Assembly (NCBI GenBank): GCA_003202005.1
Contig: QJJF01000001.1
Span: forward strand, 899,099 to 963,098
Length of the DNA stretch: 64,000 nt
From: Williamsia faeni
GTDB taxonomy: Bacteria; Actinomycetota; Actinomycetes; Mycobacteriales; Mycobacteriaceae
Reading direction: 5' to 3'
Part shown: piece by piece, positions 5,507-29,343 of the stretch
Position numbering within the stretch: the first letter of the stretch is position 1
Layout of the letters: each line of letters begins with the position of its first letter
The notes under the pieces: generated by a model
The model's input: the letters and a program-made list of their open reading frames with translations, nothing else
Told to the model about the DNA's origin: nothing
The model's database searches: none
Translations under genes and position numbers: made by a program

Positions 5507-5604
5507 CCGTCGATCGTGCCGATCGAACCGCCGACCGTGCCCCAATCACCGTCGAGCGTGCCCAACGCGCCGCCGACCGTGCCCAACGGGCCGTCGACCG
5601 TGCC
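5507..5604. repeat. array A: 21-bp tandem repeat, about 4.7 units
   Basis: Five copies start at 5507, 5528, 5549, 5570 and 5591, exactly 21 bp apart. Each begins CCGTCGA or CCGCCGA alternately, continues with a CGTGCC block and ends with seven variable bases. The array starts 5 bp after the lipase stop codon and reads CCGTCGA...CGTGCC in the direction of lipase transcription. Three related arrays occur in the window. Confidence 0.9.
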
Positions 5605-5701
5605 GTAACTGCACCGCTGAACAGGGCTTTCACGTTCTCCGATGAGTTTTTTCGCCGCTCGTGGTCTCTCTTCACAACACCACCAAATCGCGGAGGACAT
5701 C

Positions 5702-6136
5702 ATGAGCAGCAACACCACACATCAAGTTTCCACATCGTCAGACGTTCGATCCATCAGCCGCCGTGCGGAAATCGCCGGTTGGGTCGTCACCGGGCTCGTC
5801 ACGGTCCTTTTGCTCTTCGACGCCATCTCACACCTCGCTTTGCCCGAGAGTGTCAAAGACGCGTCGTACGACCTCGGCCTGACCGACGGAGATATCATCA
5901 CAACCGGCCTTGTCATGCTCGGATGCCTTGCGCTGTATCTGATTCCACGGACCGCTATCCTGGGAGCGGTCCTACTGACCGGATATCTGGGCGGCGCCGT
6001 CACCACACTGATCATTTCAGAAGACGAGTTTGCCGCCGGGGCATGGTTCCCAATCGCAGTCGGCGTAGCCGTATGGGCGGGACTCTGGTTGCGCAACAGC
6101 ACCGTTCGCTCGATCATGCCCCTCACCACCGGGTGA
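5702..6136 (+). CDS. DoxX-like family membrane protein
   Basis: 144 residues with four predicted transmembrane segments: GWVVTGLVTVLLLFDAISHL, ITTGLVMLGCLALYLI, AILGAVLLTGYLGGAVTTLI and FPIAVGVAVWAGLWL. The GYLGGAVTT segment and overall length fit the DoxX-like group (PF13564), often annotated as a small membrane protein linked to redox or quinone chemistry; the function is unknown. ATG 5702 is chosen because GGAGG lies at 5691-5695; the longer frame from 5642 lacks such a site. The gene sits between arrays A and B and is convergent with citA. Confidence 0.85.
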   Translation: MSSNTTHQVSTSSDVRSISRRAEIAGWVVTGLVTVLLLFDAISHLALPESVKDASYDLGLTDGDIITTGLVMLGCLALYLIPRTAILGAVLLTGYLGGAVTTLIISEDEFAAGAWFPIAVGVAVWAGLWLRNSTVRSIMPLTTG

Positions 6137-6200
6137 TCACCGAATAACAACACCCGACTATCGCATCGCCGGCCAACGGTGTTGCGATATCGGCATTTTC

Positions 6201-6320
6201 GGCACGCTCGACGGTGATATAGGCACGCTCGGCGGCGCGTTGGGCACGCTCGACGGCCCGTTGGGCACGCTCGACGGTGATATACGCACGCTCGGCGGCC
6301 CGTTGGGCACGCTCGACGGA
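6201..6320. repeat. array B: 21-bp tandem repeat, six units
   Basis: Copies start at 6201, 6222, 6243, 6264, 6285 and 6306. Each has GGCACGCTCGACGG or GGCACGCTCGGCGG plus seven variable bases. On this strand the array is the reverse complement of array A, so it reads CCGTCGAGCGTGCC in the direction of citA transcription. Its last unit abuts the citA stop codon (6321-6323). Confidence 0.9.
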
Positions 6321-7445
6321 TCAGGCGACGGGCGGGCCGACGTAGCGGGCTATCGGCCTGATGATCTTCCGATCTTCGGCCTGTTCAAGGATATTCGCAC
6401 ACCAGCCGACGACCCTGCTGACGGCGAATGTCGGGGTGAACATCTGCCGTGGGACACCGCAGCGGTCCATGACCACGCCGGCATAGAACTCCACATTGGC
6501 GTAGAGGTTCCGGTCGGGGTAGGCCTCCGCCAAGACCGCAACCACCTCCTTCTCCACCTGTACCGCGAAGTCGACGAGTGGTCCACCGAGAGACAATGCG
6601 ATGTCGCGCAACATTTCTGACCGGGGATCCGAGGTCCGATAGACAGCATGCCCGAAACCCATGATGCGACTGCGTTGCGCGAGTTGCGCTCGGGCCCAGT
6701 CTGTTGCGTTGCCCATCTCGCGGATTTCGTCCAGCGCATCGAGGGCGCGGTCCGGAGCCCCACCGTGCAGTGGCCCGGAGAAGGCACCGATGGCACCACA
6801 CACCGCCGAGACGACATCAGCTCCGGTGGATGCGATCACCCGTCCGGTGAAGGTCGACGCATTGAAGCCGTGGTCGATGGTGGCGATCATGTACTGCTCC
6901 ACCGCCCGGGCCGACTCCGGCGTCGGCTCGACCCCCGTCAGGCTGTACAACCAATTCTCTGCCACCGAGAGATCGTCACGCGGATCCACCGGGTCCTCAC
7001 CAGCTCGTATTCGGTACAACGCCGACAGAATCGTGGGCGTCACCGCCGCCACCACCAGCGAATCCGCGATGCGTTGTTCCGGGCCGCTGTCCCACATCGG
7101 CGCAATCTGATGTGTTGCCGCGAACGCCGACAGCACGGTCCGTAGGCCTGCCAGCATTTGTCGCTCGGTACCGGCCAGTGCCACGGTTCGCAGCAGTGAT
7201 CCCAGTTCGTCCGGAATCTTTCGCAGCGATCGGGTGAGCGTCACGAAGTCTGCGAGTTCCGACGAATCAGGAAGTTTACCGTGGACAAAGAGGTACCAGA
7301 CCTCCTCGAACGACATCGTACGAGCGAGTTCGATCGCCGAATACTGCCGGTACTGGTAGAAACCCTCGTCACCCCGGACGTCACCGACCCGGGTATCGGT
7401 CACAACGACGTTACTCAATCCTGGTGGCGCAACAATGACAGACAT
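6321..7445 (-). CDS. citA: citrate synthase 2 (CitA-type)
   Basis: 374 residues, matching the usual CitA length. Citrate synthase condenses oxaloacetate with acetyl-CoA. The catalytic residues line up as His227 (GPLHGGAP), His266 (MGFGHAVY) and Glu319 (NVEFYAG). Many citrate synthases have Asp at the third position; Glu is what mycobacterial CitA proteins carry, so this is a branch feature and not a defect. The start is set at ATG 7445 (MSVIVAPPG); a longer open frame upstream would run through the shared promoter. The gene is divergent from an HTH-citrate synthase fusion gene, which probably regulates it. The 3' end touches repeat array B. Confidence 0.9.
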   Translation of the reverse strand: MSVIVAPPGLSNVVVTDTRVGDVRGDEGFYQYRQYSAIELARTMSFEEVWYLFVHGKLPDSSELADFVTLTRSLRKIPDELGSLLRTVALAGTERQMLAGLRTVLSAFAATHQIAPMWDSGPEQRIADSLVVAAVTPTILSALYRIRAGEDPVDPRDDLSVAENWLYSLTGVEPTPESARAVEQYMIATIDHGFNASTFTGRVIASTGADVVSAVCGAIGAFSGPLHGGAPDRALDALDEIREMGNATDWARAQLAQRSRIMGFGHAVYRTSDPRSEMLRDIALSLGGPLVDFAVQVEKEVVAVLAEAYPDRNLYANVEFYAGVVMDRCGVPRQMFTPTFAVSRVVGWCANILEQAEDRKIIRPIARYVGPPVA

Positions 7446-7495
7446 CGATGTCTCCGATCTTCTATTGTGTTCTTCTGGTACAGCTACATTCGGCG

Positions 7496-7531
7496 CAACA
7501 TTGATCGGTGTCAATGTTGATCGAATCAACA
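7496..7531. promoter_or_regulatory. overlapping palindromes in citA / HTH-citrate synthase promoter region
   Basis: CAACATTGA (7496-7504) is a perfect inverted repeat of TCAATGTTG (7511-7519). TGTTGAT (7515-7521) is in turn a perfect inverted repeat of ATCAACA (7525-7531). Three half-sites of the same ATCAACA-like element therefore lie in the 100-bp divergent region. The most likely binder is the HTH protein encoded to the right. The site is seen directly; the binding is inferred. Confidence 0.68.
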
Positions 7532-7545
7532 TGGAGGTGCCTGAG

Positions 7546-8790
7546 ATGACAACCGAGATCCGCCGCGGTGGCCATAGGCGACGATGGCCCACCCCACTGC
7601 GTCATGACGGTCGCGACTACCTGACCACCGCGCAGGTAGCCAGGGTTCTGGGTGTCAAAACACAGACGGTCTACGCCTACGCCAGTCGCGGAACCCTCAC
7701 CAGCGCACGCATCGACGGCGTCAGTGGGAGCCTGTTCGCCGTCGATGAGGTGGACGCGGTTGCACGTCGGTCGTCATCACGTCCACCCGCCGGCGTCGTC
7801 GAGCGAATACGTACGCAGATAACACTTCTCGAGAACGACCACCTGTACTACCGCGGCCACGACGCCACCGTCCTGGCCGGCGACACCCGATTCGAGACCG
7901 TCGCCGAACTGTTGTGGGACCACAGCACGACCTGGGACGTAAAGTTACTGCCCGCCAGAGTCTTCCGGCAGATCTCCGCCTTGCAGCCACCGACCGGGCG
8001 GGGTGTGGACACCATCAAGATGGTCATCGACGTCCTGGGTTCACGCGATGCCTCACGCCACCAGCGCTCACCGGACGCGATCTGCGCACGCGCCGCGGGC
8101 ATCCTCGCCAACAGTGTCGAAGCCCTTCCGTTGCTGTCCGACAAGCCCGCGCTCGACACCTCACTGGCAGCGCGGCTCTGGCCTCGGCTATCCACCATAA
8201 CCCCGACTCGACAACGGATTCGGTTGCTGAACATGGCATTGGTGTTGCTGGCCGACCACGACCTCACCTCCGGCACGGTGGCCGCTCGGGTTGCCGCCAG
8301 TTCTCGTGGCAGCATCTATTCGGTGGTCACCTCGGGGCTCGGAGCGCTCGACGGTTCGCTCCACGGCGGTGCCTCCACCCTCGCCTACCGCTTCCTTCGC
8401 GAGGCCACGACCAACCCGACTGCAGCCATCTCGATGGAGCTGGAGGCTTCCGGATCCATTCCGGGTTGCGGCCACGTGGTCTACACCGATCACGATCCGC
8501 GCAGCGACACCCTGCTCACCGCGCTCGCCGATGCATCCGGCGGCAATCGCAAGGTCATGCCGACGATCGCCGGCCTTCGACCACTACTGGACCAGGCGGG
8601 CGCCGGGTTCATGAACTCCGACATGGCGCTTGCCGCGCTGGCTTTGCGCTACGACATGGCCCCGGATGCAGCCGAGACCATCTTCGCCTTGTCCCGGATT
8701 GCCGGCTGGGTGGCACATGCCATCGAGGAGTACAACGAACCGCAGCTACGGTTTCGGCCGGAAGGCGTGTACGTGGGAATCCGGCCGTGA
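7546..8790 (+). CDS. fusion of excisionase/MerR-type HTH with citrate synthase domain
   Basis: 414 residues. Residues about 26-75 form a helix-turn-helix of the excisionase/MerR type (YLTTAQVARVLGVKTQTVYAY, then a wing-like SLFAVDEVDA segment). Residues about 85-410 are a citrate-synthase domain. The three catalytic positions are kept: His273 (GSLHGGAS), His310 (PGCGHVVYT) and Asp359 (NSDMAL). Start ATG 7546 follows GGAGGTG; upstream in-frame starts overlap citA and were rejected. The gene is divergent from citA with palindromes between. A metabolite-responsive regulator that uses its enzyme domain as a sensor, or a genuine bifunctional enzyme, are both possible. The retained triad does not decide between them. 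Confidence 0.88.
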   Translation: MTTEIRRGGHRRRWPTPLRHDGRDYLTTAQVARVLGVKTQTVYAYASRGTLTSARIDGVSGSLFAVDEVDAVARRSSSRPPAGVVERIRTQITLLENDHLYYRGHDATVLAGDTRFETVAELLWDHSTTWDVKLLPARVFRQISALQPPTGRGVDTIKMVIDVLGSRDASRHQRSPDAICARAAGILANSVEALPLLSDKPALDTSLAARLWPRLSTITPTRQRIRLLNMALVLLADHDLTSGTVAARVAASSRGSIYSVVTSGLGALDGSLHGGASTLAYRFLREATTNPTAAISMELEASGSIPGCGHVVYTDHDPRSDTLLTALADASGGNRKVMPTIAGLRPLLDQAGAGFMNSDMALAALALRYDMAPDAAETIFALSRIAGWVAHAIEEYNEPQLRFRPEGVYVGIRP

Positions 8791-8848
8791 CAGGCCCGCA
8801 TGGCAGGATTGGCGGCGCCATATCTCGTTCGATCTCGCAAGGAGCACC

Positions 8849-9250
8849 ATGACCACCCCCGATGCCAACGAAGGCTCCCGGTTCGAACCCGGAATGCAGA
8901 TCCGCCGGGACGTGATGGGTGACGAGTTCGTCGACCGCGCCCTCGGCCGGACCCAGGGCACCGAATCCGAGGCGATCCAGACAGCGATCACCGACCTGGT
9001 CTGGGGCGGAATCTGGTCGCGGCCGGGTCTCGAACGCCGGGACCGGAGCCTGCTGAACATCGGCCTGCTGACCGCGCTGCGAGCACACGGCGAGCTTGCC
9101 GGCCATGTCCGCGGAGCACTGAAGAACGGTTTGTCCCGCACCGAGATCACCGAGGCCGTGATCCATTGCAGCGGATACTGCGGGGCGCCGGCCGCGTTGT
9201 CTGCCATGGCCGTGGTGCAAGAGGTCTTCGACGCCACGCCCACCGACTGA
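8849..9250 (+). CDS. carboxymuconolactone decarboxylase family protein (PcaC-like)
   Basis: 133 residues, the normal length of single-domain CMD proteins. The helical core includes ERRDRSLLNIGLLTALRAHGEL and the active-site-like segment IHCSGYCGAPAA. PcaC decarboxylates 4-carboxymuconolactone in the protocatechuate branch of the beta-ketoadipate pathway, but no other pca gene is nearby, so the substrate is uncertain; the family also includes peroxidase-like members. AAGGAG precedes ATG 8849 by about five bases. The gap to the next gene (DUF429) is 6 bp, so the two are probably co-transcribed. Confidence 0.85.
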   Translation: MTTPDANEGSRFEPGMQIRRDVMGDEFVDRALGRTQGTESEAIQTAITDLVWGGIWSRPGLERRDRSLLNIGLLTALRAHGELAGHVRGALKNGLSRTEITEAVIHCSGYCGAPAALSAMAVVQEVFDATPTD

Positions 9251-9256
9251 CCGGCG

Positions 9257-10009
9257 ATGCGGACACTGGGGATCGACCTTGCGTCACAACCGAATCGGAC
9301 GGCGATGGCGACGCTCGAGTGGTCTGCCACCGGCGCGGTGGTCTGCGACGTGCAGACGGTTGTCACCGACGCGGACATCCTCGCCGCCGCACCCGGCGCC
9401 GACAAAGTGGGTATCGATGCCCCGTTCGGCTGGCCGGATGCGTTTGTCGACGTGGTGTCCGCACATCACATCGGCGATGTCCCCCTAGAGCAAACACTGT
9501 TCACAGATACCGGGGTGACCCGCTTTGTCGCACGTCGTACCGATGAATGGGTCCGTGCGACCACCGGATTGATCCCGCTGAGCGTCTCGGCGGATCGCAT
9601 CGCCTACGTGGCACTTCGAGCGATCCGATTGCTCGCACACCTCGACGGACCCGACTTCGACACCGGCCGGGTCAATGGAACCGCTGTCGAGGCGTATCCC
9701 GCTGCCGCACTGAAGATCTGGGGATTTCGCCACAAGAGGTACAAGGGCCGGCCACAGCAGGTAACACTCGCCGAACTCGTCGGCGAACTGGAAATACAGG
9801 CTCCCTGGCTCGACTTCGGCTCGGCCCGAACGGTCTGCACCACCAGCGACGACGCGTTCGACGCGGTGATCACCGCGCTCATCGCGCGGGCTGCCGCACT
9901 GAACCTGACCGTGTTGCCCGACGCAGAGCACGCCGCCATCGCCCAGCGCGAGGGCTGGATTCACATACCGGGCGCACCTCTGGATGCGCTGGTCACTCAG
10001 TTGTCCTGA
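9257..10009 (+). CDS. DUF429 domain-containing protein (RNase H-like fold)
   Basis: 250 residues. The opening MRTLGIDLASQP, KVGIDAPFGWPD and late SDDAFDAVITALIARAA carry spaced acidic residues in the pattern of the predicted RNase H-like nuclease fold of DUF429. The start at 9257 lies 6 bp after the preceding CMD-family stop. The last 13 bp overlap the 3' end of the convergent PPOX gene. No member of this group has a settled function; nuclease activity is a fold-based prediction. Confidence 0.82.
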   Translation: MRTLGIDLASQPNRTAMATLEWSATGAVVCDVQTVVTDADILAAAPGADKVGIDAPFGWPDAFVDVVSAHHIGDVPLEQTLFTDTGVTRFVARRTDEWVRATTGLIPLSVSADRIAYVALRAIRLLAHLDGPDFDTGRVNGTAVEAYPAAALKIWGFRHKRYKGRPQQVTLAELVGELEIQAPWLDFGSARTVCTTSDDAFDAVITALIARAAALNLTVLPDAEHAAIAQREGWIHIPGAPLDALVTQLS

Positions 10010-10482
10010 GCGTCCAGTCGGGCTGCGATGTCGGCGGGGAATCCACCGGTGGCGAGCGGACCCCAGCGAGTGGGAGTGATGCGGATGAGGGACTTGTTCT
10101 GCAACTTCATCGCGGCGCGGTACTCATCCCAGTCGGAATGCTCACCGGCGATACTCCGGAAGTAGTCGACCAGCGCGTCCTCGGCCTCGGGCATGTCCAG
10201 CACTTCGGCCGTACCGTCCACCTGCACCCACGCGGCATTCCACTCATCCGACAGCACACAGACACTCACCGCGGGATTCCGTTTGATGTTGATGGTCTTC
10301 GCTCGTCCCGGGTACGTCGCGATCACGATGCGGCCCTGCTCATCGACACCGCCGCTGACCGGAGACAGCTGCGGCGTCCCGTCAGCGCGGACCGCGCTGA
10401 GCAGCATTTTGTGCCGCGGACGAACGAAGTCCAGGAGTGCGGCGAGATCAACTTCGGTGTTGGTTGCGACTGTGCGTGCCAT
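9997..10482 (-). CDS. PPOX-class (F420- or FMN-dependent) oxidoreductase
   Basis: 161 residues with the split-barrel flavin fold: KMLLSAVRADGTPQLSPV, then VIATYPGRAKTINIKRNP and VSVCVLSDEWNAAWVQVDGTAEVLD. This matches the PPOX/FDOR group, which in mycobacteria and relatives often uses cofactor F420. The start is ATG 10482 (MARTVATN); an upstream extension is possible but adds an unconserved tail. The C-terminus ends in a basic-acidic tail typical of the longer FDOR-B members. The substrate is unknown. Confidence 0.85.
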   Translation of the reverse strand: MARTVATNTEVDLAALLDFVRPRHKMLLSAVRADGTPQLSPVSGGVDEQGRIVIATYPGRAKTINIKRNPAVSVCVLSDEWNAAWVQVDGTAEVLDMPEAEDALVDYFRSIAGEHSDWDEYRAAMKLQNKSLIRITPTRWGPLATGGFPADIAARLDAQDN

Positions 10483-10529
10483 CTGGCCAGCGTACGGAGT
10501 ATTGCAATCGGAGATACATGACAGGTGGT

Positions 10530-11480
10530 TCACCCGTCATTTCGAAGGTGTCGGGGTAGGCCTTCGCTTTCCGGCTCGCTGGTTGTCGCGCCACTGTCCG
10601 ATGATGAAGCACCGCGCCTCCACATCAGAACGAACGATAGAACGACCACAATGCCGACGGTGTTGAGGATCGTGATCGACACCGTGACCAGCGGATCGGC
10701 TCTAAAGGGAAAAATCATCATCAGGAGCATCGGAGCGATATTGCGTACTGCCGTGGTCGCCTCGGCCGCATGCCTGACTCCCACGTCTTTGACTCGAAGA
10801 GTGGAAACGAGAATGTATCCGCACCCGAGGCCGATGAATGGGCCGGCAAGGGCCGCGATGTAGCTCTCGGTGCCCCAGGTGTCGACGAACAGACTCCAAT
10901 ATGCGACCAGCGTGAAGTTGAGATTGAAGAGCAGGCACAGAATTGCAACTCGGACAGTCCACTGTGCCAGCGGTGGCGTCAGGTCGGGCCACCAGACCCT
11001 GAAGGCGCACCCGAGAGCCAGCGGAATGAGCAAAAAGAGCAGCACCGGCCACGCAATATCCCAGACAGAAGCTTTGAGTGGCGCGTCAACCGCATCGATG
11101 GCGAGGGGCAGTCCGATCGGGAGGGCGATGACCGTCGCGACAGTCAAAACCACTATCAGCGTGGTGGCTATGCTCACATCCGCCTTGGCCAACCGGGCGA
11201 GGAGCGGAGCGAAAGGCATACCTGCACACAGAGCCGCGACACAGAACCCGACCTTGATCTCTCCGGGAATGGACGAGGCTATCGTGAGCAAATAGCCGAT
11301 GAACAGCAGTGGGATGATGACGAAATTGATCACCAATGCCAACGCGGCGATCTTCCAATGGCTTATGGCCTGCGCCAACAGCTTGCCGATCTGAAGCCTC
11401 AGACCCAAACCGAACGAGTTCAAAATCACGAAGAGCACCCCAAACCCGTTGATCAGGACGCTCTGACTGGAGTGGGTCAT
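10530..11480 (-). CDS. bile acid:sodium symporter (SBF/BASS) family transporter
   Basis: 316 residues with about nine to ten hydrophobic helices, including NGFGVLFVILNSFGLGLRL, the crossover-like AALCAGMPFAPLLARLAKAD and EATTAVRNIAPMLLM. Those two conserved segments match the two unwound-helix motifs of SBF transporters. The C-terminal tail after the last helix is hydrophilic and Ser/Glu-rich. Bacterial members carry organic anions such as pantoate or keto acids with sodium; the cargo here is not predictable. It stands alone between PPOX and FadD genes, all on the minus strand but with gaps of 47 and 175 bp. Confidence 0.82.
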   Translation of the reverse strand: MTHSSQSVLINGFGVLFVILNSFGLGLRLQIGKLLAQAISHWKIAALALVINFVIIPLLFIGYLLTIASSIPGEIKVGFCVAALCAGMPFAPLLARLAKADVSIATTLIVVLTVATVIALPIGLPLAIDAVDAPLKASVWDIAWPVLLFLLIPLALGCAFRVWWPDLTPPLAQWTVRVAILCLLFNLNFTLVAYWSLFVDTWGTESYIAALAGPFIGLGCGYILVSTLRVKDVGVRHAAEATTAVRNIAPMLLMMIFPFRADPLVTVSITILNTVGIVVVLSFVLMWRRGASSSDSGATTSEPESEGLPRHLRNDG

Positions 11481-11655
11481 ATCGCTCCGTTCTCGCTCCC
11501 GAGCACTGCGAATGGCCAGTTTGGTGTCCCCACTGGTGGCCAGGTAAAAGTATCCACCCTATGCGGGACATTCGCCCCCGGATGGGCAAGTTTGCAGCAG
11601 CATGACGGGTCGAGGGCCTGGCGCAGAAGTACAGGATCCGACGAATCAGCGTCGG

Positions 11656-13179
11656 CTACAGATCCGCCCGCAACTCGCGTTTGAGGAGTTTGCCGCTCTG
11701 GTTGCGCGGCAATTCATCAACGAACACAACGCGTTTCGGTACCTTGAACGGCGCGATCTGTTCCTTCACATGGGCGATCAAGGTCTCCGATGCAACGTCG
11801 CCGGCGTCGGGACGCAGCACCACCACCGCGGTGATCGCCTCGATCCACTTCTCGTCGGGGGTACCGATCACGGCGACCTCGGCGACGCCGGGATGGGTGT
11901 AGATCGCGTCCTCGACCTCGCGCGACGCCACCAGGATCCCACCGGTGTTGATGACGTCTTTGATGCGGTCGACCACCGTGAGGAAGCCGTGCTCGTCCCG
12001 GGTGACCAGATCACCGGAGTGGAACCAGCCACCACTGAATGCCTCTTCGGTGGCATCGGGGTTTTCCCAATACCCTTGGCACAGTTGGGGTGAACGGTAG
12101 AGAACCTCACCGGCCGTGCCGTCGGGAACGTCGTTGCCCTCGGTGTCGACCACGCGAGTCTCGACGAAGAACACCGCCTTGCCGCAGGAGGCGGGCCGGT
12201 CGGCATGGTCCTCGGGACCCAGAACCGCGGCCAGAGGCCCGATCTCGGACTGTCCAAAACAGTTGTAGAACTTGATGTCCGGGTAACGCTCACGCAAACG
12301 GTTCAGCACGGTGACCGGCATGATCGACGCCCCGTACTGGGCCTTGCGCAGCGACGACAGGTCGCGGGCGTCGAGATCGGGATGACCGGCCAGCGGTACC
12401 CAGACGGTCGGCGCGAGGAACAGCGATCCGATCTTCTCGGATTCGATGCGGCGCAATATCTCCGGGATGTCCGGCGTCTCGATCAGACTGATGGTCGCGC
12501 CGACCGACAAATACGGAAGCATGAACACGTGCATTCCGGCCGAGTGATACAGCGGCATGGCGATGAGCGGGTTGTCGCTCTGATCGAGATCGAGTGCGAT
12601 CACCGAAGACACGTACTCGTGCACCATCGCGGTGTGGGTCATCATGGCGCCCTTGGGCTTTGATGTTGTCCCGGATGTGTAGAGAAGCTGCACGAGATCG
12701 GTGTCGGCGACCTCCCAATCGATCTCGGAGACGTCCCCGGAACCGGCCAGGTCAACCAGTGATCCGTCCTCGTCACGCAGGCTGATGACCTGTCCGATGT
12801 CGAGTGCGTCGGCAACGGGCGCAAGATTCGCGCGTAAGTTCGGGTCCACCAGGACCGCGCGGCTACCCGATTGGCCGATGAGGTACGACAACTCGCCTTC
12901 CTTGAGCGCGTAGTTCACCGGCACATGAATCAATCCGCCGCGGGCGCACGCCAGGAAGCCGATCGCGTAGGCGTCTGAGTTGGTGCCGTAGGCCGCCACC
13001 CGATCGCCGCTGTTCAGTCCGAGTGAACGCAGGTAGCCCGCAGCCCTGGTCACCGCTTGGTCCAGCTCGGCGTACGTCCAGGCGCGATCGGCGAATCGCA
13101 GCGCGGTCCGTTCGGGGAACCGCGCTGCGCTCCGGCGCAGAACTCCATCGACGGTACTGAAACGGGGGTTGGCGATCAT
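11656..13179 (-). CDS. long/medium-chain acyl-CoA synthetase (FadD-type AMP ligase)
   Basis: 507 residues. ANL-superfamily motifs appear in order: P-loop YTSGTTSKPKG, YNCFGQSEIGP, GEVLYRSPQLCQGYW, the hinge VDRIKDVINTGG and the catalytic Lys in NQSGKLLKREL. The enzyme activates a carboxylic acid as acyl-AMP and transfers it to CoA. The substrate is probably a fatty or aromatic acid. Divergent from an amidohydrolase; the short intergenic region holds an 8-bp GGACGTCC palindrome that could be an operator. Genes of this kind are abundant in mycolata and are hard to tell apart by sequence. Confidence 0.88.
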   Translation of the reverse strand: MIANPRFSTVDGVLRRSAARFPERTALRFADRAWTYAELDQAVTRAAGYLRSLGLNSGDRVAAYGTNSDAYAIGFLACARGGLIHVPVNYALKEGELSYLIGQSGSRAVLVDPNLRANLAPVADALDIGQVISLRDEDGSLVDLAGSGDVSEIDWEVADTDLVQLLYTSGTTSKPKGAMMTHTAMVHEYVSSVIALDLDQSDNPLIAMPLYHSAGMHVFMLPYLSVGATISLIETPDIPEILRRIESEKIGSLFLAPTVWVPLAGHPDLDARDLSSLRKAQYGASIMPVTVLNRLRERYPDIKFYNCFGQSEIGPLAAVLGPEDHADRPASCGKAVFFVETRVVDTEGNDVPDGTAGEVLYRSPQLCQGYWENPDATEEAFSGGWFHSGDLVTRDEHGFLTVVDRIKDVINTGGILVASREVEDAIYTHPGVAEVAVIGTPDEKWIEAITAVVVLRPDAGDVASETLIAHVKEQIAPFKVPKRVVFVDELPRNQSGKLLKRELRADL

Positions 13180-13279
13180 GCCCCAACTTTATAGGACGTC
13201 CAAGTATTGGATACCCCAGAATGGGGCATAGGGTCCGCCCGCATTGCGCCGCGGACCCGCCTACTGGAAAGTGAGGACC

Positions 13280-14800: not shown

Positions 14801-14806
14801 GTTCCA

Positions 14807-14826
14807 TCGGATGCTGGGTCATCCGA
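14807..14826. terminator. hairpin after the amidohydrolase gene
   Basis: TCGGATG and CATCCGA form a 7-bp stem with a 6-base loop (CTGGGT), starting 7 bases after the stop. There is no U tract, so it could be a weak actinobacterial I-shaped terminator. Confidence 0.4.
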
Positions 14827-14949
14827 GTTGGCAGCCCGTGGGTCCGGTGGGTAGGTTCCTACAGTCCGACGGCTGTGACCTCGGGTAATAAACCCGCAAA
14901 GTCCGATCAATTGCCCCGCACTCCCCGCCGTAGGACCAGAAAGTGAATC

Positions 14950-19144: not shown

Positions 19145-19168
19145 GTTTTTGAACGGATAGTTACTGCC

Positions 19169-19342: not shown

Positions 19343-19415
19343 TCAAAGCTGTTATCTGGCAGCTGATCTCGGCGCACGGCGTGCACTCTCGGTGAAGCTG
19401 GTCTTGGATGGGAAC

Positions 19416-19772: not shown

Positions 19773-19863
19773 CGCACCGTTCAATTCGGACCGCGCGAAA
19801 GGGCTCTGTTGTCGCGGTCCGGTCCGTAGTCTTCTGTGCAGATCAGACCAGAAGAGGACAACG

Positions 19864-20751: not shown

Positions 20752-20784
20752 ACCGGGCGTCGCGGTTGATTCCCGATACTGTCC

Positions 20785-22260: not shown

Positions 22261-22367
22261 ATAGTCGATCGTCCCACCTGCGAGCCAACTGGGCAGCGCA
22301 ACCGGAGATCCCCAGGATCATCCCCCTGGTTCACTCTCGAGTGGGGCAGATTGCCCTCGGCACCCTG

Positions 22368-22961: not shown

Positions 22962-23186
22962 CGGCCGAGAACCTCATCCTGCGACCGTCGGTCAGGTTAC
23001 GTCACCACAGCACCCTTGCCACGGGTTTGAATCGGTGAGGGTTTTGGGCTTCTCCCGGGGGCCGGCCAACCGAAGCCGGCAGATCCGGGTGCACCCACCG
23101 ACCCGGCTACGCTCGAAGGCAGCATGTGGTCGCCGCGCCGTGCGGCATCCGACCCGCCATTTGTGAACCCACGAAGGGATTGTGCA

Positions 23187-23633
23187 GTGACCAGCAACTC
23201 CGACGGACTGCTCGGCTACGCCGCAGGCGAGATCGTGCGCGGCGAAGGACGCGGTGCGCCGATGGGCTTCCCGACCGCAAACATCCACGCCGTGGACGAG
23301 AGCCGGATTCCCGACGACGGCGTCTACTTCGGCTGGTTCGGTTTGGCCGAGGGTGATCCGCCGCGTGGTCGACTGAGCGCCGGTACCTGGCTGCCCGCCC
23401 TGATCTCGGTGGGGAACAATCCCACCTTCGACGGCCGCACCCGCACCGTCGAGGCCTACCTCATGGACTTCGACGAAGATCTGTACGGCGCGCACGCGAT
23501 CGCGGAACTGACCACACTGGTGCGACGAATGGAGAACTTCAACTCCATCGACGAGCTGGTGGTCGCCATGGAAGGCGACAAACAGGCCGCCCGCGACCTC
23601 TTGGCAAAGCACCCGACCCGGCCGGAGATTTAG
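23187..23633 (+). CDS. stand-alone riboflavin kinase domain protein
   Basis: 148 residues consisting only of the riboflavin kinase fold: GEIVRGEGRGAPMGFPTANI (ATP/flavin loop with the PTAN metal-binding signature), GVYFGWF, SVGNNPTF and EAYLMDFDEDLYG. Riboflavin kinase makes FMN from riboflavin. Most bacteria use the bifunctional RibF with an N-terminal FAD synthetase half; that half is absent here, and the length fits an intact single-domain enzyme. Start GTG 23187 follows GAAGGG. Probably a second kinase, with full RibF elsewhere. Confidence 0.85.
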   Translation: MTSNSDGLLGYAAGEIVRGEGRGAPMGFPTANIHAVDESRIPDDGVYFGWFGLAEGDPPRGRLSAGTWLPALISVGNNPTFDGRTRTVEAYLMDFDEDLYGAHAIAELTTLVRRMENFNSIDELVVAMEGDKQAARDLLAKHPTRPEI

Positions 23634-23654
23634 CCCCTACTCTGGTTGACTGCG

Positions 23655-24431
23655 TCAAAGATCAAGTGCAACAGCAGTATCGAGGGCGACCTCGATACTG
23701 CGCATCCAGCCGTCCTTGAGTGCTGCCTTCTGATCTCCGTAGACACTGACACCATCGACGAGATTGCTGGAACAGGCACACACCATACCGGCTTTCAGAC
23801 CCCGTAGCTTCGCGACGACGTACAGCGCGGAACTCTCCATCTCGACGTTGAGTATCCCCATACCGGACAACTGTGAGATCCACTCCGGCCCTTCCGCATA
23901 GAAGGCATCGTCGGTCGCATTGATACCCGAATACACACTGAATCCGCCACGCTCGGCGGCCATCGCCTCGGCCACCCGCCGCAATTCGGCGGCAATCGAA
24001 ATATCCGGTACCGCAGGGAATCCCGGGTGCACATAGGCGGCGGTGGTGCCATCGTTGCGCAGTGAGCCCTCACTCACCAGGAGATCTCCGGGCGCGATGC
24101 CGGGCTGCAGTCCGGCCGAACTGCCCACGCGGATGAGTGAGGTCACGCCAACCCTGGCCAGCTCCTCCACCGCGATGGCCGTTGACGGACAACCCATTCC
24201 GGTCGATGTCGCGGTGATCAGCTTGCCCTTGTAGAACCCCGTCATCGTTCTGTGTTCGCGATTGTGGGCGATGTCCTTGACGTCGGTCAGGAACTCGGCG
24301 ACAAAGGGCACGCGGAACGGATCGCCTGGCAGCAACGCCACCGTTCCGACCTCACCGGGCGCCACCCCGATGTGGTACTGCCGCACGTCGCGACCGGCGG
24401 CGTTCTTGTCGACGACCATCTTCTCTGGCAC
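23655..24431 (-). CDS. uridine/purine nucleoside phosphorylase (PNP_UDP family)
   Basis: 258 residues. LLPGDPFRV is the phosphate-binding start, STGMGCPSTAIAVEEL is the uridine-phosphorylase-type signature and LNVEMESSALY gives the ribose and base contacts. The enzyme splits nucleosides with phosphate into base and ribose 1-phosphate. The sequence favours uridine phosphorylase over DeoD, though substrate preference is not certain. It is convergent with the riboflavin kinase gene. Confidence 0.88.
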   Translation of the reverse strand: MPEKMVVDKNAAGRDVRQYHIGVAPGEVGTVALLPGDPFRVPFVAEFLTDVKDIAHNREHRTMTGFYKGKLITATSTGMGCPSTAIAVEELARVGVTSLIRVGSSAGLQPGIAPGDLLVSEGSLRNDGTTAAYVHPGFPAVPDISIAAELRRVAEAMAAERGGFSVYSGINATDDAFYAEGPEWISQLSGMGILNVEMESSALYVVAKLRGLKAGMVCACSSNLVDGVSVYGDQKAALKDGWMRSIEVALDTAVALDL

Positions 24432-24568
24432 GTGGGGTACTCCGGCTCTCGTGGGGGTGGTTGCCTGTGCAAACTATCGCGCTGTCGGCACATCCGCCTG
24501 TCGAGTCCCGAAGAGTAGCTTGGGAAGTAGCCGGCACCGATGACTTCGATCAGATCCGAGGTGGCATC

Positions 24569-24865
24569 GTGACCAACGACGTCGAGAAGCGCTGGAACGA
24601 CCCCCGTGCATTCCACACCGCCGCCAAGTATGTCGTCTGGGTGGTTGTCCTGGCCGGCCTCTGGTTGATCGCCTACCTCCTGATCAACCCGTCCAGCATC
24701 CTGTGGGCCATGGGTGTCACGGCGATCCTGATGTGCGGCGGTATCGGCGCTTTTGTCGAGGCCTACCGCGTCTACACCCGGGGCGGCACCTGGCCGATCT
24801 GGCAAGGCGCCGGCTGGTTTCTGTTCATGCTGATGCTGGCCACCATGGGTGTGGTGGCGGTCTGA
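24569..24865 (+). CDS. small membrane protein, three predicted helices
   Basis: 98 residues, conserved-looking but not a family I can name. Hydrophobic helices: YVVWVVVLAGLWLIAYLLI, ILWAMGVTAILMCGGIGAFV and WQGAGWFLFMLMLATMGVVAV. The N-terminal part (TNDVEKRWNDPRAFHTAA) is cytoplasmic by charge. Start GTG 24569 has GAGGTGG upstream. Convergent with ndh, 21 bp apart. Function unknown. Confidence 0.72.
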   Translation: MTNDVEKRWNDPRAFHTAAKYVVWVVVLAGLWLIAYLLINPSSILWAMGVTAILMCGGIGAFVEAYRVYTRGGTWPIWQGAGWFLFMLMLATMGVVAV

Positions 24866-24886
24866 ACCAGACCGTCCCGACCTCGG

Positions 24887-26230
24887 CTAGCTCGCATTCT
24901 TCCTGGCGTTGGTGAAGTACGTGTTGCGCGCGATTCGGGAGTCGCCGAATGTGATGGCCCGCTCACGCCGCGAACCCAGGAACAGCGTTGCCGCCCAATT
25001 CAGCACCGTACCAACGCGATTGCGACCCCCCGCCAGGAATGCGATGTGGATGACACCCCAGAAGATCCAGCCCAACCGACCCGAAAGGTGCAGCGGTCCG
25101 GCCTGAATCAGCGCGTGGCCCCGCGCGACGTAGGCCGCACTACCCAGATCGCGGTACTTGAACGGCGCCCGCGTGGCGTTGCCATCCGATTCGACCTCGG
25201 CGGCGATCAGCTTGCCGACGTACCATCCACCCTGCATCGCAACCTCGGCCACCCCGGGCAGGTTGTCGCGGGCCATCATGTCACCGATCACCCAGATGTT
25301 CGGATGTCCGGGAACCGTCAGATCCGGTTCGACCGCAATGCGTCCGGACCGGTCCTGCGAGGCGCCCAGCGCAGCGGCGAGTTCCTTGGCGAACGGCACC
25401 GCCTCCACGCCACACGTCCAGACGATGGTGTGGGCGCCGTACCGGGTCGTCGTTTTCGGCTCGGCCTTCGTGGTCGTCTCGACGTGGTCCGGGCCGACGT
25501 CGGTGACGTGAACTCCCAGATGCGTCTCGACACCGACCTTGTCCAGCGTGCGCTGGGCATTTCTCGACAACTTCTCGCCGAAAGACGGCAGTACCCGGTC
25601 ACCACCGTGCAGCAACAGCACCCTGGCCTCCCGCGGATCGATGGACCGGAACTCGTTCGTCAGAGCGTGTAGCGCCAATTCGCGGATCTGACCGGCGATT
25701 TCCACCCCGGTGGGACCCCCTCCGGCAACGACAAACGTGAGCCAGGGGCGCCTTTCCTCGGCCGTCGGCAATGACTCGGCCATCTCGAACGCGGTGATCA
25801 ATGTGCGGCGAATGGTCAAGGCGTCGTCGAGCGTTTTCATGCCCGGCGCCCAGTCGATGTATTCGTCATGTCCGTGATAGGCCTGCTGCATACCCGCGGC
25901 GACCACGAGGTGGTCGAACGGCAGATCGAACGTCGAACCGTCGGACCGGCAGGCGGTGAGTGTCCGGGTCTCCACGTCGATTGCCGTCGCCTCCCCCAGC
26001 GCCACGTGCGCGTTCTTCTGCCGGCGCAACAGATGTCGCAGCGGACTGGCTATCGAGCCCTCGGACAGCAGGCCTGTCGCGCACTGGTAGAGCAGCGGCT
26101 GGAAGACATGACTGGTTCCCCGGGACAGCAGGGTGACATCGACGTCTGCATTCCGCAGTTTCCGCGCCGCATTGAGGCCACCGAATCCGCCGCCGACAAT
26201 GAGTACATGTGGTCGCTCAGATGCAGTCAT
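24887..26230 (-). CDS. ndh: type II NADH dehydrogenase (NDH-2)
   Basis: 447 residues. FAD-binding HVLIVGGGFGGLNAA, the second Rossmann motif FVVAGGGPTGVEIAG for NADH, WTCGVEAVPFAKEL, the WVIGDMMA FAD-ribityl motif and the C-terminal hydrophobic membrane-anchor segment WIFWGVIHIAFL. The non-pumping dehydrogenase feeds electrons from NADH to menaquinone, the main entry point of the respiratory chain in mycolata. Start ATG 26230. Divergent from an MFS gene across an AT-rich 219-bp promoter region. Confidence 0.92.
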   Translation of the reverse strand: MTASERPHVLIVGGGFGGLNAARKLRNADVDVTLLSRGTSHVFQPLLYQCATGLLSEGSIASPLRHLLRRQKNAHVALGEATAIDVETRTLTACRSDGSTFDLPFDHLVVAAGMQQAYHGHDEYIDWAPGMKTLDDALTIRRTLITAFEMAESLPTAEERRPWLTFVVAGGGPTGVEIAGQIRELALHALTNEFRSIDPREARVLLLHGGDRVLPSFGEKLSRNAQRTLDKVGVETHLGVHVTDVGPDHVETTTKAEPKTTTRYGAHTIVWTCGVEAVPFAKELAAALGASQDRSGRIAVEPDLTVPGHPNIWVIGDMMARDNLPGVAEVAMQGGWYVGKLIAAEVESDGNATRAPFKYRDLGSAAYVARGHALIQAGPLHLSGRLGWIFWGVIHIAFLAGGRNRVGTVLNWAATLFLGSRRERAITFGDSRIARNTYFTNARKNAS

Positions 26231-26449
26231 ATTCTCTTTCGATCTCCAATTGCCACAGAACAAAGGCCTGGGTACGAAACTATCGATCGCCGTCTCGATT
26301 ACTGCGAAAGTCTATCCTCGCCGGTGTGTGGCGAATCACGCCGAGACAATTTGACCACCTGAGTCATTTGCTTTAATTTGGGTAAGTCGGCTGATTTAGA
26401 TTTCTGGCGACCGACGACCCGATCCTGAATCCCCCGGAGGCGCACACCT

Positions 26450-27922
26450 ATGCCCATTCTCGAAGCCGACGGAACCACCAGGACTCGGTCACCCGGCCCG
26501 ATCGTGGCCATCCTGGCGTTTTCCGGCGTGGTCGCCGCGCTGATGCAGACCGTGTTGATCCCGATCATCCCGGAATTGCCCAGGCTGCTCGACGCCTCTT
26601 CGTCCGACACCGCCTGGGCCGTCACAGCCACCCTGCTGACCGGCACCGTCGCCGTGCCCGTCATGGGCCGCCTCGGAGATATGTTCGGCAAGCGCCGCAT
26701 CCTGCTCCTTAGCATGATGTTCCTGATCATCGGATCCACGGTCGTGGCGTTGAGCAGCAGTCTTGGACCGCTTCTCGTCGGACGGGTACTGCAGGGCCTG
26801 GCGGGCGCGGTGATTCCGTTGGGGATCAGCTTGATGCGCGACGCTCTCCCCAAAGAGAAGCTGGCGAGTTCGGTGGCGATGATGAGCGCCTCACTGGGTA
26901 TCGGTGGCGCGCTCGGTCTTCCCATCTCGGCCCTGATCGCGGAGTACGCGAACTGGCACTTCCTCTTTTGGATCTCCGCGGCGCTCGCGGCGGTCGCCGC
27001 TGTCCTGATCCTCACGTTCGTTCCCGAATCGCCCATCCGGAGCGGTGGAACCTTCGACTACGTCGGCGCCACATCGCTGTCGGCCGCACTGATCGCGTTG
27101 CTCCTCACCATCACCAAGGGCGCCGACTGGGGCTGGACCAGTAGCACCACCCTGACGCTGGTGGCCATTGCCGCGATCGCATTCGCGGTCTGGGGTTGGT
27201 GGGAACTCCGCACCAAACTCCCGCTGGTCGATCTTCGGGTCACCACCGGCCGCCAGGTCCTCTTCACAAACCTGGCCTCGGCTGCACTCGGCTTTGCGAT
27301 GTTCGCCATGACGCTCGTGCTGACGCAGGTCCTCCAGCTGCCCGAGACCACCGGATACGGGATGGGCAAGTCGATGCTCGCCACCGGCCTGGTCATGGCT
27401 CCCTTTGGTGTGGTGATGATGCTGGCCGCTCCGGTGTCTGCCCGGATCACCAACTCCCGGGGCCCGAAGACAACGCTGATGACCGGCGCGGTTGTTGTCG
27501 CCGTGGGTTACCTGGTCGGCGCGTTCGCACTCAGCACCGTCTGGCAGATCACCCTCGTCGGAATCATCATCGGCGCCGGTACCGGCCTGGCCTACGGCGC
27601 CATGCCGGCACTGATCATGGGCGCAGTCCCGATGTCGCAGACGAGCGCGGCCAACAGCTTCAACACCCTGATGCGCTCACTCGGAACGTCCCTTGCCAGC
27701 GCCATCGTGGGCGTGATCCTGGCCCAGATGACGATGTCGTCCGGCGGGTTCGACGTCCCGACCGCAGATGCGTTCAAGGTGACGATGCTGGTTGCCGCCG
27801 GCGCATCGATCCTCGCATTCTCACTGGCCGCCTTCATCCCGCGGTTCAAGGCAACCCCGCCTTCGGTCCAGCTGCCCGACACCATCGCCGGGGTCGAGGA
27901 GTCCACAACCGTTACTCGCTGA
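26450..27922 (+). CDS. MFS drug efflux transporter (DHA2-type)
   Basis: 490 residues. About 14 hydrophobic helices; GRLGDMFGKRR between helices 2 and 3 is the MFS A motif, and RVLQGLAGAVIPLGISLMRD fits motif B with Gln-Gly-Leu. The 14-helix layout matches DHA2 drug:proton antiporters. GGAGG at 26436-26440 sets ATG 26450. The AT-rich promoter shared with ndh ends in AATTTGGGTAAGT-like sequence. The substrate is not predictable. Confidence 0.9.
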   Translation: MPILEADGTTRTRSPGPIVAILAFSGVVAALMQTVLIPIIPELPRLLDASSSDTAWAVTATLLTGTVAVPVMGRLGDMFGKRRILLLSMMFLIIGSTVVALSSSLGPLLVGRVLQGLAGAVIPLGISLMRDALPKEKLASSVAMMSASLGIGGALGLPISALIAEYANWHFLFWISAALAAVAAVLILTFVPESPIRSGGTFDYVGATSLSAALIALLLTITKGADWGWTSSTTLTLVAIAAIAFAVWGWWELRTKLPLVDLRVTTGRQVLFTNLASAALGFAMFAMTLVLTQVLQLPETTGYGMGKSMLATGLVMAPFGVVMMLAAPVSARITNSRGPKTTLMTGAVVVAVGYLVGAFALSTVWQITLVGIIIGAGTGLAYGAMPALIMGAVPMSQTSAANSFNTLMRSLGTSLASAIVGVILAQMTMSSGGFDVPTADAFKVTMLVAAGASILAFSLAAFIPRFKATPPSVQLPDTIAGVEESTTVTR

Positions 27923-27997
27923 GCCTTACGCAGATACGCTCCATGCCACAGTGCATGGGGCGTTTTTGCATGTGGAGGAAATTCGGGAGGTGACCGG

Positions 27998-29107
27998 GTG
28001 GAGCAGGTCGATTGTGTGGTGATCGGCGCCGGAGTCATCGGCCTGGCCACTGCCCGGCAGCTGGCGCGCAGCGGACGTGACGTTCTGATCGTCGAGCGCG
28101 CAGAGCTGATCGGGTCCGAAACCAGTTCACGCAATTCCGAAGTCATCCACGCCGGTATCTACTATCCCGCCGGTAGTGCCAAGGCGCGGCTTTGCACGTC
28201 CGGCCGCGACAAGCTCTACGCATACTGCGTCGACCACGGCGTCGACCACCAACGGATCGGCAAGCTGATCGTGGCGACCGACACCGACCAGGTGGACCGT
28301 CTGTCGGGTATCGCTGCTGCCGCAGAGGTCAACGGCGTCACGGATCTTCGGCTGATCGACTCTGACGAACTCGCCGAACTCGAACCGGATCTGCATGCCG
28401 AGCAGGCACTGCTGTCACCGTCCACCGGCATCATCGACAGCCACGGTCTGATGTCCGCACTGCGCCGCGACGCCGAAGAAGCCGGCGCGACCACGGCGCT
28501 GCGGAGTTCGGTGACAGGTGGGGCCGTGACCGGCAGGACGGGACCGCAAACCTCGATCGTCCTGGTCATCGACGACACCGAGATCGCCTGCGACACAGTG
28601 ATCAACTGTGCCGGGTTGAGCAGCTGGGATGTGGCCGCGCAACTCGACGGATTTCCGGCGACCAGCCTTCCGCCTCGGCACTATGCCAAGGGCAACTACT
28701 ACACTCCGGCCGGCGTCAAAGTGCCGTTCTCCCGGCTCATCTACCCGATCCCCGTCGACGGAGGACTGGGCGTGCATCTCACCCTCGACCTCGGTGGCCA
28801 GGCACGCTTCGGCCCGGACGTCGAATGGGTGGATAGTGTTGATTACCAGGTGGATCCGAGTCGGGCCGACGCCTTCTACTCCGAGATCCGCCGGTATTGG
28901 CCCGGGTTGCCCGACAACACCCTGACTCCCGCCTACTGCGGCATCCGCCCCAAACTCTCCGGTCCGGGCGAACCAGCTGCCGACTTCCTGATCCAGGGTC
29001 CCGCCGACCACGGCATTCCCGGACTCGTCAATCTTTTCGGCATCGAATCCCCCGGACTGACTTCATGTTTCGCCATCGCAGAAACCGTCGCCACCCACCT
29101 CGCCTGA
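27998..29107 (+). CDS. FAD-dependent oxidoreductase, L-2-hydroxyglutarate oxidase-like
   Basis: 369 residues, DAO/LhgO family. The N-terminal FAD motif [17 protein letters not shown] is followed by [14 protein letters not shown], the hallmark of LhgO/L2HGDH, and by PHLRPKLSG-type [11 protein letters not shown] near the end. The enzyme would oxidise L-2-hydroxyglutarate to 2-oxoglutarate and pass electrons to the membrane, clearing a by-product of the TCA cycle. Start GTG 27998 has GGGAGG 7 bases upstream. A 21-bp repeat array starts 13 bp after the stop. Confidence 0.84.
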
Positions 29108-29120
29108 CCCCGCCACCACC

Positions 29121-29218
29121 CCGTCGAGCGTGCCGAACGAACCGCCGAGCGTGCCCTCGTTACCGTCGAGCGTGCCGAACGAACCGCCGAGCGTGCCCTC
29201 GTTACCGTCGAGCGTGCC
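29121..29218. repeat. array C1: 21-bp tandem repeat in 42-bp dimers
   Basis: Units at 29121, 29142, 29163, 29184 and a partial one at 29205. Unit 1 equals unit 3 and unit 2 equals unit 4, so the array is built of two identical 42-bp dimers (CCGTCGAGCGTGCC then CCGCCGAGCGTGCC) plus one more copy. It reads CCGTCGAGCGTGCC in the direction of the upstream LhgO-like gene. Confidence 0.92.
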
Positions 29219-29235
29219 GAAACTGCCAGCGTTTC
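29219..29235. terminator. small hairpin at the centre of the C1/C2 inverted arrays
   Basis: GAAAC and GTTTC pair around a 7-base loop (TGCCAGC), between array C1 and its inverse C2. The flanking blocks GTCGAGCGTGCCGAA and TTTGGCACGGTCGAC extend the stem with two mismatches. This is the centre of a large fold between two convergent genes and may be a bidirectional terminator. Confidence 0.45.
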
Positions 29236-29244
29236 AGCATCTTT

Positions 29245-29343
29245 GGCACGGTCGACGGTCGGATGGGCACGGTCGACGGTCGGATGGGCACGGTCGACGG
29301 TCGGATGGGCACGGTCGACGGTCGGATGGGCACGGTCGACGGG
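29245..29343. repeat. array C2: 21-bp tandem repeat, 4.7 units, inverted to C1
   Basis: Four identical units start at 29245, 29266, 29287 and 29308 (GGCACGGTCGACGG plus TCGGATG), then a partial fifth at 29329. On the minus strand it reads CCGTCGACCGTGCC, in the direction of the symporter gene that ends at 29418, 75 bp away. Confidence 0.92.

What the first reader, a model, noticed from the sequence alone, without database searches (positions are those of the whole stretch)
5507..29343. A family of 21-bp tandem repeats marking gene 3' ends, always in the same orientation
Four arrays (5507-5604, 6201-6320, 29121-29218, 29245-29343) share a CCGTCGASCGTGCC core and an exact 21-bp period with alternating CCGTCGA/CCGCCGA units. 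Array B starts at the citA stop, A lies 5 bp past the lipase stop, C1 13 bp past the LhgO-like stop, and C2 75 bp past the symporter stop. Each reads CCGTCGASCGTGCC in the direction of the upstream gene. Units within an array are near identical, which suggests recent slippage or gene conversion, while units differ between loci. This fits an element that moves or is copied into 3' regions, or a terminator/RNA-stability element. I know of no described family with these features.
Basis: seen in the sequence. Interest (0 to 1): 0.75.

Follow-up and report, generated by a model that had tools for sequence, protein, structure and literature searches.

The report
Williamsia gene-end tandem repeat element
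The four arrays belong to a large family of 21-bp tandem repeats found in the bacterial genus Williamsia, which sit just past gene ends, mostly where two genes run towards each other, and may mark where transcription stops; they resemble known intergenic repeats but are built differently.

Summary
The window's genome (5.52 Mb, genus Williamsia) has 162 adjacent 21-bp unit pairs; the reversed-pattern control has none. In 1.04 Mb taken without selection, arrays occupy 13 of 70 convergent gaps, 12 of 274 co-directional and 1 of 143 divergent. The basic element is two arms facing each other around a short centre; many arrays are one arm. Centre lengths cluster at 24-27 bp, the rest at 17 or 36-37 with one exception, i.e. 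helical-turn steps. Arms are not complementary beyond chance, and single units are less structured than shuffles. This argues against a selected RNA hairpin and for a DNA-bound protein. Convergent gaps with arrays less often have a separate hairpin terminator: 9 of 46 against 44 of 93 (samples partly chosen around arrays). Eight of nine genomes of the genus have the pattern; outside it sampled genomes are at background. No RAYT-type transposase was found. Placement resembles REP/BIME elements, but the REP features tested are not met. Best reading: a genus-specific REP-like element acting as a protein-bound transcription boundary. Family and geometry are shown; function is inferred.

The parts
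5507..5604 (+). Array A: 5 units of 21 bp (14-bp core CCGYCGASCGTGCC + 7-bp spacer), 5 bp after the stop of a lipase-like gene; single arm
6201..6319 (-). Array B: 6 units, 1 bp past the stop of the citrate-synthase-like gene; single arm in a convergent gap
29121..29218 (+). Array C1: left arm of a facing pair, 5 units, 13 bp after the stop of the LhgO-like gene; 42-bp higher-order repeat
29219..29244 (.). 26-bp centre between the arms (gaaactgccagcgtttcagcatcttt), the commonest centre length
29245..29342 (-). Array C2: right arm, 5 units with identical spacers, 75 bp past the stop of the symporter gene
29356..29385 (-). Separate GC-rich hairpin (12-bp stem) between the symporter stop and C2; an ordinary terminator candidate, not part of the element
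4545..5501 (+). Lipase-like gene upstream of A
6321..7445 (-). Citrate-synthase-like gene (citA) upstream of B
27998..29107 (+). LhgO-like gene upstream of C1
29418..31052 (-). Symporter-like gene upstream of C2

Best explanation
A dispersed, genus-specific intergenic element. SHOWN: it consists of arms of 14-bp cores at 21-bp steps; two arms often face each other around a centre of mostly 24-27 bp, otherwise 17 or 36-37 bp; elements lie just past stop codons, mostly between convergent genes; unit number differs between species at one locus; whole elements are duplicated locally, and related copies sit at unlinked loci. INFERRED: a DNA-binding protein occupies the cores, which lie on one face of the helix (21 bp = two turns), in two opposed rows. 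The bound row is a barrier that stops RNA polymerase arriving from either gene, so the element does the work of a bidirectional terminator where a hairpin terminator is often missing. The protein is not identified. The mover, if there is one, is not a RAYT.
For: Same-strand steps between neighbouring unit hits in the 1.40-Mb sample: 240 are exactly 21 bp, none 20 or 22, 18 other. Centre length: of 48 own-genome elements, 38 lie at 24-27 bp and 9 at 17 or 36-37; all 9 are in helical phase with the main class, chance 1.9e-6 if independent (one further element, L178, has 4 bp once a decayed unit is counted), although centre sequences have diverged. Placement: convergent 13 of 70 against divergent 1 of 143, p=2e-6, and against co-directional 12 of 274, p=2e-4. 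The nearer gene end is the 3' end in 15 of 17 co-directional gaps. Hairpin terminators are rarer in convergent gaps with arrays: own 5 of 27 vs 33 of 74, p=0.020, length-matched 25 of 57, p=0.029; relatives 4 of 19 vs 11 of 19, p=0.045, not length-matched. Cores are conserved while spacers and centres vary. Monomers are less structured than shuffles.
Against: No binding protein, transcript end or termination assay is available. The 18 irregular same-strand steps are not clearly phased (p=0.06 at 10.5 bp). Out-of-phase facing pairs exist: one locus with a 21-bp centre shared by G001 and G007, and L178 with 4 bp. The 36-37-bp centres may share an ancestor, which would weaken the phasing statistic. 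Hairpin depletion is modest, absent in co-directional gaps (3 of 17 vs 59 of 325) and not significant on the unselected 1.04 Mb alone. Most gene ends have no array; one genome of the genus (G008) has no relaxed pair and G002 one; sixteen 20-kb stretches of eight relatives around the B and C2 genes have no array. Some elements sit behind an ordinary hairpin (C2).
Confidence: 0.42

Rival explanations
1. A selfish or neutral REP-like repeat that spreads by copying and slippage and survives only where it does least harm, past stop codons and away from promoters. It has no role for the host.
For: Copy number varies from 0 to 280 relaxed pairs within one genus; no array at the A and B sites in the relatives compared (5 and 6 genomes); near-identical elements at unlinked loci; placement like REPs (PMC3733652); nearly absent from divergent gaps.
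Against: Does not predict helical quantisation of centre lengths, 21-bp steps kept while spacers differ, core conservation in an element shared between species (C1:567636 and L122, read by eye), or fewer hairpin terminators. No transposase candidate found (only RAYT was sought).
Confidence: 0.4
2. An RNA element: facing arms form a long stem in read-through transcripts that terminates transcription or protects mRNA ends.
For: C1+C2 as RNA folds at -165.5 kcal/mol, z -11.9; located in 3' flanks. Innermost core position 11 agrees between arms slightly more than chance (0.875 vs 0.825).
Against: Arms do not co-vary. Spacer complementarity 0.340 against 0.404 for arms of different loci; centre arms 0.536 vs 0.587; innermost core position 8 0.312 vs 0.442, position 4 0.375 vs 0.475, i.e. 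no more than chance and somewhat less. The four single arms of the window have z from -1.32 to +0.45, and many arrays have one arm only.
Confidence: 0.09
3. A Rho-loading region: an unstructured C>G stretch right after the stop codon.
For: In this genome array-bearing 3' flanks have C-G skew +0.21 against +0.05; leaders between stop and first unit are 50% C, 16% G against 35% and 28% just after arrayless stops; monomers are unstructured.
Against: The C-rich leader is not seen in the relatives (38% C vs 37%); units are 30% G; does not explain facing arms or centre phasing.
Confidence: 0.08

Closest known systems
REP / BIME elements (GTAG- and CGTC-tagged families; PMC3733652: abstract, passages and section 14 read)
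   Same: Intergenic, mostly between convergent and co-directional genes, close to stop codons, often in facing dimers, with mismatched partners (heterodimers) common and copy number varying between species.
   Different: REP monomers are 20-40-bp palindromes with an unpaired GTAG or CGTC tag; here the monomer is not a hairpin, arms are long tandem arrays at a 21-bp step, and no RAYT gene is found.
MIRU/VNTR loci of mycobacteria (recalled; my search, listed one paper on another subject)
   Same: Tandem repeats in intergenic regions of actinobacteria, oriented with neighbouring genes, length-variable, some overlapping stop codons (recalled).
   Different: MIRU units are much longer (recalled) and are not known to me as facing arms around a length-quantised centre.
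Iteron arrays of plasmid origins (recalled)
   Same: Direct repeats near 21-22 bp on one helix face, read by a protein.
   Different: Those are single origin loci; these are dispersed at gene ends and often inverted.
Tandem terminator boxes read by TTF-I at rDNA 3' ends (recalled; one search listing seen)
   Same: Working principle proposed here: repeated, oriented protein sites past a gene end block the polymerase.
   Different: Eukaryotic, one locus type, unrelated sequence; a bacterial protein is not known.
TAACTGA heptamer repeats of Beggiatoaceae (PMC4679880, abstract read)
   Same: Short direct repeats in many intergenic sets.
   Different: Most lie just before start codons in that paper's main genome; these follow stop codons.

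Membership tests
REP (GTAG/CGTC) | Monomer is a palindrome forming a stem-loop (8-9 bp stem for CGTC) | tested here: not met
   348 21-mers: mean MFE -1.80 against -3.42 for shuffles
REP (GTAG/CGTC) | Unpaired GTAG or CGTC tag at one end of a stem | tested here: not met
   CGTC occurs inside the core only when position 4 is T (55%), and the monomer has no stem for it to tag
REP with RAYT (GTAG) | Y1 transposase (RAYT) in the genome | tested here: not met
   PF01797: 0 of 13 genomes, own included; 5 of 14 control genomes ring
REP / BIME | Extragenic, enriched near gene 3' ends and in convergent gaps, depleted in divergent gaps | tested here: met
   13 of 70, 12 of 274, 1 of 143 gaps of 50 bp or more
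REP / BIME | Facing (inverted) dimers common | tested here: met
   17 of 27 convergent array gaps hold both strands with + before -, 1 reads '--+', 9 hold one strand only; non-convergent two-strand gaps 11 of 12 with + first
Intrinsic terminator | Base-paired stem kept by compensatory change | tested here: not met
   Arm complementarity not above permuted pairs, except core position 11
Known RNA family (Rfam 15) | Match at gathering score | tested here: not met
   0 matches in the 64-kb window
Protein-read array (iteron-like) | A protein that binds the unit | not testable with these tools
   No binding data; only spacing evidence
MIRU | Unit length and sequence | not tested
   Recalled only

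The most novel reading that the evidence does not exclude
Williamsia uses a dedicated DNA-binding protein, not a hairpin, to end transcription between convergent genes: two opposed rows of 14-bp sites, locked to the same helix face, form a bidirectional roadblock terminator that has been multiplied over the genome and can be lengthened by 21-bp slippage. This would be a bacterial counterpart of tandem protein-read terminators.
Probability: 0.25. Interest if true: 0.82.

Novelty: new variant of a known kind. Interest (0 to 1): 0.56.

Why it matters
How actinobacteria end transcription between convergent genes is, to my knowledge, poorly settled. A repeat family with a helix-phased geometry, arms that do not pair, and fewer hairpin terminators beside it makes a protein-based gene-end boundary directly testable. 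If it is only a selfish repeat, it is still a REP-like element without the hairpin monomer and without the RAYT, which bears on how such repeats spread. Unit number also differs between species at the same locus (3 against 5 units at L102/L116), so arrays could serve as typing markers, and gene finders may call false genes on them, as mine did.

Tried and rejected
Hairpin or RNA-stem selection: tested by permuting arms between loci; not above chance. RAYT-driven REP: PF01797 absent in 13 of 13 genomes. Coding repeat: my gene caller placed 8 of 113 exact units in called genes; three called ORFs on C1 were mostly array and were dropped, after which all 52 arrays lay in gaps. Rho-loading by a C-rich leader: seen only in this genome, not in the relatives. 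Phage or plasmid origin: no match of the C1-C2 stretch in 50,697 phage and 72,556 plasmid records; one viral contig matched a pattern, but there the repeats lie in long open frames at steps mostly of 12, 21 and 24 bp, so I treat it as a coding repeat. Junctions at empty sites: intergenic DNA is too diverged between species to show exact insertion points. My first hairpin finder demanded unbroken stems and missed obvious terminators; the second allows two mismatches. On C1 alone neither gave a significant depletion.

Rows dropped before counts: three array-ORFs, 2 of 54 relaxed facing pairs without a neighbouring unit (L127 and L192), one relative's pair (L193) and 3 local duplicates, leaving 48; related neighbours in L185 and L191 were kept, both in the main length class. 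In one search, 2 of 51 lay at contig edges. For centre lengths, 10 of the 48 (47, 48 or 57 bp) were counted as 26, 27 or 36 bp plus one decayed inner unit, after I read their sequences. L178 was counted at 25 bp; its sequence shows a decayed unit that leaves 4 bp, so I take it out of the main class here. Five more facing pairs found only by the weight matrix have 26, 26, 26, 27 and 47 bp; single-hit pairs at 49, 50 and 67 bp (start-to-start 63, 64, 81) were not resolved further, except that the 49 is the dropped L127.
Full report
WHAT IS THERE. The four arrays are real and placed as stated. The unit is a 14-bp core, CCG[C/T]CGA[G/C]CGTGCC, plus a 7-bp spacer. Genome-wide, two adjacent cores with a 7-bp spacer occur 162 times (73 forward, 89 reverse), and the reversed pattern never. 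To avoid selection I took C1:1-1,040,000 in adjoining stretches, called genes with a codon-usage caller of my own, and scanned with a weight matrix: 305 single hits against 50 in reversed DNA; 52 arrays with 192 units against 0 chained pairs in reversed DNA.

PLACEMENT. After three called ORFs made mostly of array were dropped, all 52 arrays lie in intergenic gaps: 13 of 70 convergent gaps of 50 bp or more, 4 of 100 and 8 of 174 co-directional, 1 of 143 divergent (convergent against divergent p=2e-6). In a larger sample of 1.40 Mb, partly chosen around arrays, 104 arrays were found, 1 of them in a called gene, in 27 convergent, 17 co-directional and 4 divergent gaps. Of 49 facing pairs that could be placed, 34 are in convergent gaps, 14 co-directional, 1 divergent. 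In co-directional gaps the array is nearer the 3' end in 15 of 17; the median distance to a stop is 15 bp there and 16 bp in convergent gaps. In two cases that I read, the first unit (CCGTTGA, CCGCTGA) supplies the gene's own stop codon (C1:141401; L117).

ANATOMY. Two arms facing each other are the commonest layout, and C1 and C2 are such a pair. In convergent gaps of this genome 17 of 27 hold both strands with + first, 1 reads '--+' and 9 hold one strand only; of two-strand non-convergent gaps 11 of 12 have + first (p=0.006). So the orientation rule is largely the rule of the pair. Single-strand arrays in co-directional gaps are the real test of gene direction: 6 of 7 in this genome and 6 of 8 in the relatives follow the gene, 12 of 15 in all (p=0.018; 11 of 14 and p=0.029 without one orthologous repeat). 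A weak second arm can be missed at these thresholds (L110 has a lone opposite core). Exceptions exist, e.g. C1:896795, and C1:981087 in a divergent gap.

GEOMETRY. Same-strand steps are exactly 21 bp in 240 cases, never 20 or 22, and 18 others. A whole-genome search for facing cores 10-40 bp apart (44 per strand, control 0), with the stretches fetched, gives 48 own elements after removal of 3 local duplicates. Counting a decayed inner unit as a unit, one search gives centres of 17 (2), 24 (1), 25 (2), 26 (30), 27 (6), 36 (2) and 37 (5) bp; none at 18-23 or 28-35. One of the two 25s (L178) is really 4 bp beside a decayed unit, so 38 are at 24-27, 9 at 17 or 36-37, and 1 at 4 bp. All 9 are in helical phase with the main class (p=1.9e-6 if independent; two of the 37-bp centres are alike and others may share an ancestor, so this is an upper claim). 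Relatives show 16, 18, 26, 36 and 48 bp, which fit to within 2 bp, and one locus shared by G001 and G007 with 21 bp, which does not. Of the other sites listed, three have no neighbouring unit (L194, L197, L198; L198 lies in a gene), L192 has none either, and L196 is not a clean facing pair. Centre sequences differ much more than their lengths (consensus GAAanTGctnGCGCgCnaGCAnTTTC; median edit distance 12, against 16 for shuffled centres). The 18 irregular same-strand steps are not clearly phased (p=0.06 at 10.5 bp, p=0.016 at 10 bp with another phase).

NO SIGN OF PAIRING. The C1-C2 pair folds strongly as RNA (-165.5 kcal/mol, z -11.9), as any inverted pair must. But across loci the arms do not co-vary: spacers 0.340 against 0.404 for arms of different loci, centre ends 0.536 against 0.587, innermost core position 8 0.312 against 0.442, position 4 0.375 against 0.475, position 5 0.562 against 0.609. 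These lie at or slightly below chance; position 11 lies slightly above it (0.875 vs 0.825). The window's single arms are not structured (z -1.32, -1.25, +0.45, -0.04), and monomers are less structured than shuffles (-1.80 vs -3.42, n=348). Avoidance of perfect pairing agrees with the suggestion in PMC3733652 (section 14) that mismatched REP pairs escape removal.

TERMINATORS. In convergent gaps with arrays a separate strong hairpin is rarer: 5 of 27 against 33 of 74 gaps of 60 bp or more without arrays (p=0.020; 25 of 57 length-matched, p=0.029, on the 1.40-Mb sample); in the relatives 4 of 19 against 11 of 19 (p=0.045; free length 131 against 208 bp, so not matched); together 9 of 46 against 44 of 93 (p=0.0016). 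There is no difference in co-directional gaps (3 of 17 vs 59 of 325), and on the unselected C1 alone none is significant (1 of 13 vs 17 of 69, p=0.28; 3 of 13 vs 22 of 53, p=0.34). C2 itself has an ordinary hairpin between it and the gene (29356-29385). A C-rich leader exists in this genome but not in the relatives.

DISTRIBUTION AND SPREAD. I infer the genus Williamsia: G006 of the same genus carries a contig of the same length as one of Williamsia sp. 1135, which a scan of a collection of 84,980 species (own genome left out) found with a facing-pair pattern; the only other hit lies near the end of a MAG contig labelled Methyloligella. Relaxed pairs: own 280, the eight others 18, 1, 58, 32, 90, 61, 17 and 0, control 0. 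Of 248 other sampled genomes of the order 10 have 1-2. A facing-pair search over 301 genomes of the family hit own, G004, G006 and one genome of another genus, G121, once. Arrays in the 30 relatives' stretches, chosen around pairs, are intergenic, with one small ORF called over an array in L107 and one in L118. Sixteen 20-kb stretches of the eight relatives around the citA and symporter orthologues hold none. In 93 orthologous gap comparisons 3 have arrays in both genomes, 12 only here, 78 in neither. The 12 come from three own loci (A in 5 genomes, B in 6, C1:334736 in 1), and the 3 shared ones from stretches chosen because the relative has an array, so these are no rates. The gap at C1:567636 shows, by eye, the same double facing layout in G006. 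Near-identical centres occur at C1:567690, C2:205311 and C7:108930 with unrelated flanks, so elements are copied between loci; others are doubled locally. No RAYT-type transposase was found.

READING. What is shown is a genus-specific REP-like element with its own build. The length clustering, the constant cores with free spacers, and the missing co-variation point to a protein that reads DNA; the scarcer hairpins and the position past stops point to a transcription boundary. A tolerated selfish repeat is almost as likely. The checks added exceptions but did not move my odds. In print: the listings (titles and starts of abstracts; one search listed 20 of 40 papers, one of them a Williamsia genome report that I did not read) showed no description of this family, and of six forms of the core string one was found once in one paper, a phage study (listing only). 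The library holds open-licence papers only.

Noticed in passing
6159-6189: Imperfect hairpin (TATCGCATCG...TGTTGCGATA) just inside array B, between B and the small + gene; it may be the centre-side remnant of a lost arm or an ordinary terminator.
   Followed up: partly
29356-29385: Strong GC hairpin between the symporter stop and C2, so here the array lies beyond a terminator candidate.
   Followed up: partly
L090, L124, L126, L185, L191 and C1:998025-998526: Gaps with two related facing elements one after another, some of them near-identical, so whole elements are also duplicated in place.
   Followed up: partly
L173:2893-3332: A viral contig holds many core-like units in one direction, at steps mostly of 12, 21 and 24 bp, inside long open frames rich in Ala, Asp, Ser and Thr; probably a coding repeat that resembles the core by codon choice.
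   Followed up: partly
L197:3036-3073: Near-perfect hairpin (CCGGCGAACGCGCCGG...TGGCGCGTTCGTCGG) between convergent genes of G005, caught by the facing-core pattern but without array units; looks like an ordinary terminator.
   Followed up: partly
59425-59499: A 9-bp tandem repeat (CTACCGGAA, 8.7 copies), of another sequence than this family.
   Followed up: no
C1:142483-142683, 215075-215419, 653948-654121: ORFs called over arrays by my caller look like genes by codon usage (21 bp is a multiple of 3); such ORFs may be misannotated as proteins in Williamsia genomes.
   Followed up: partly
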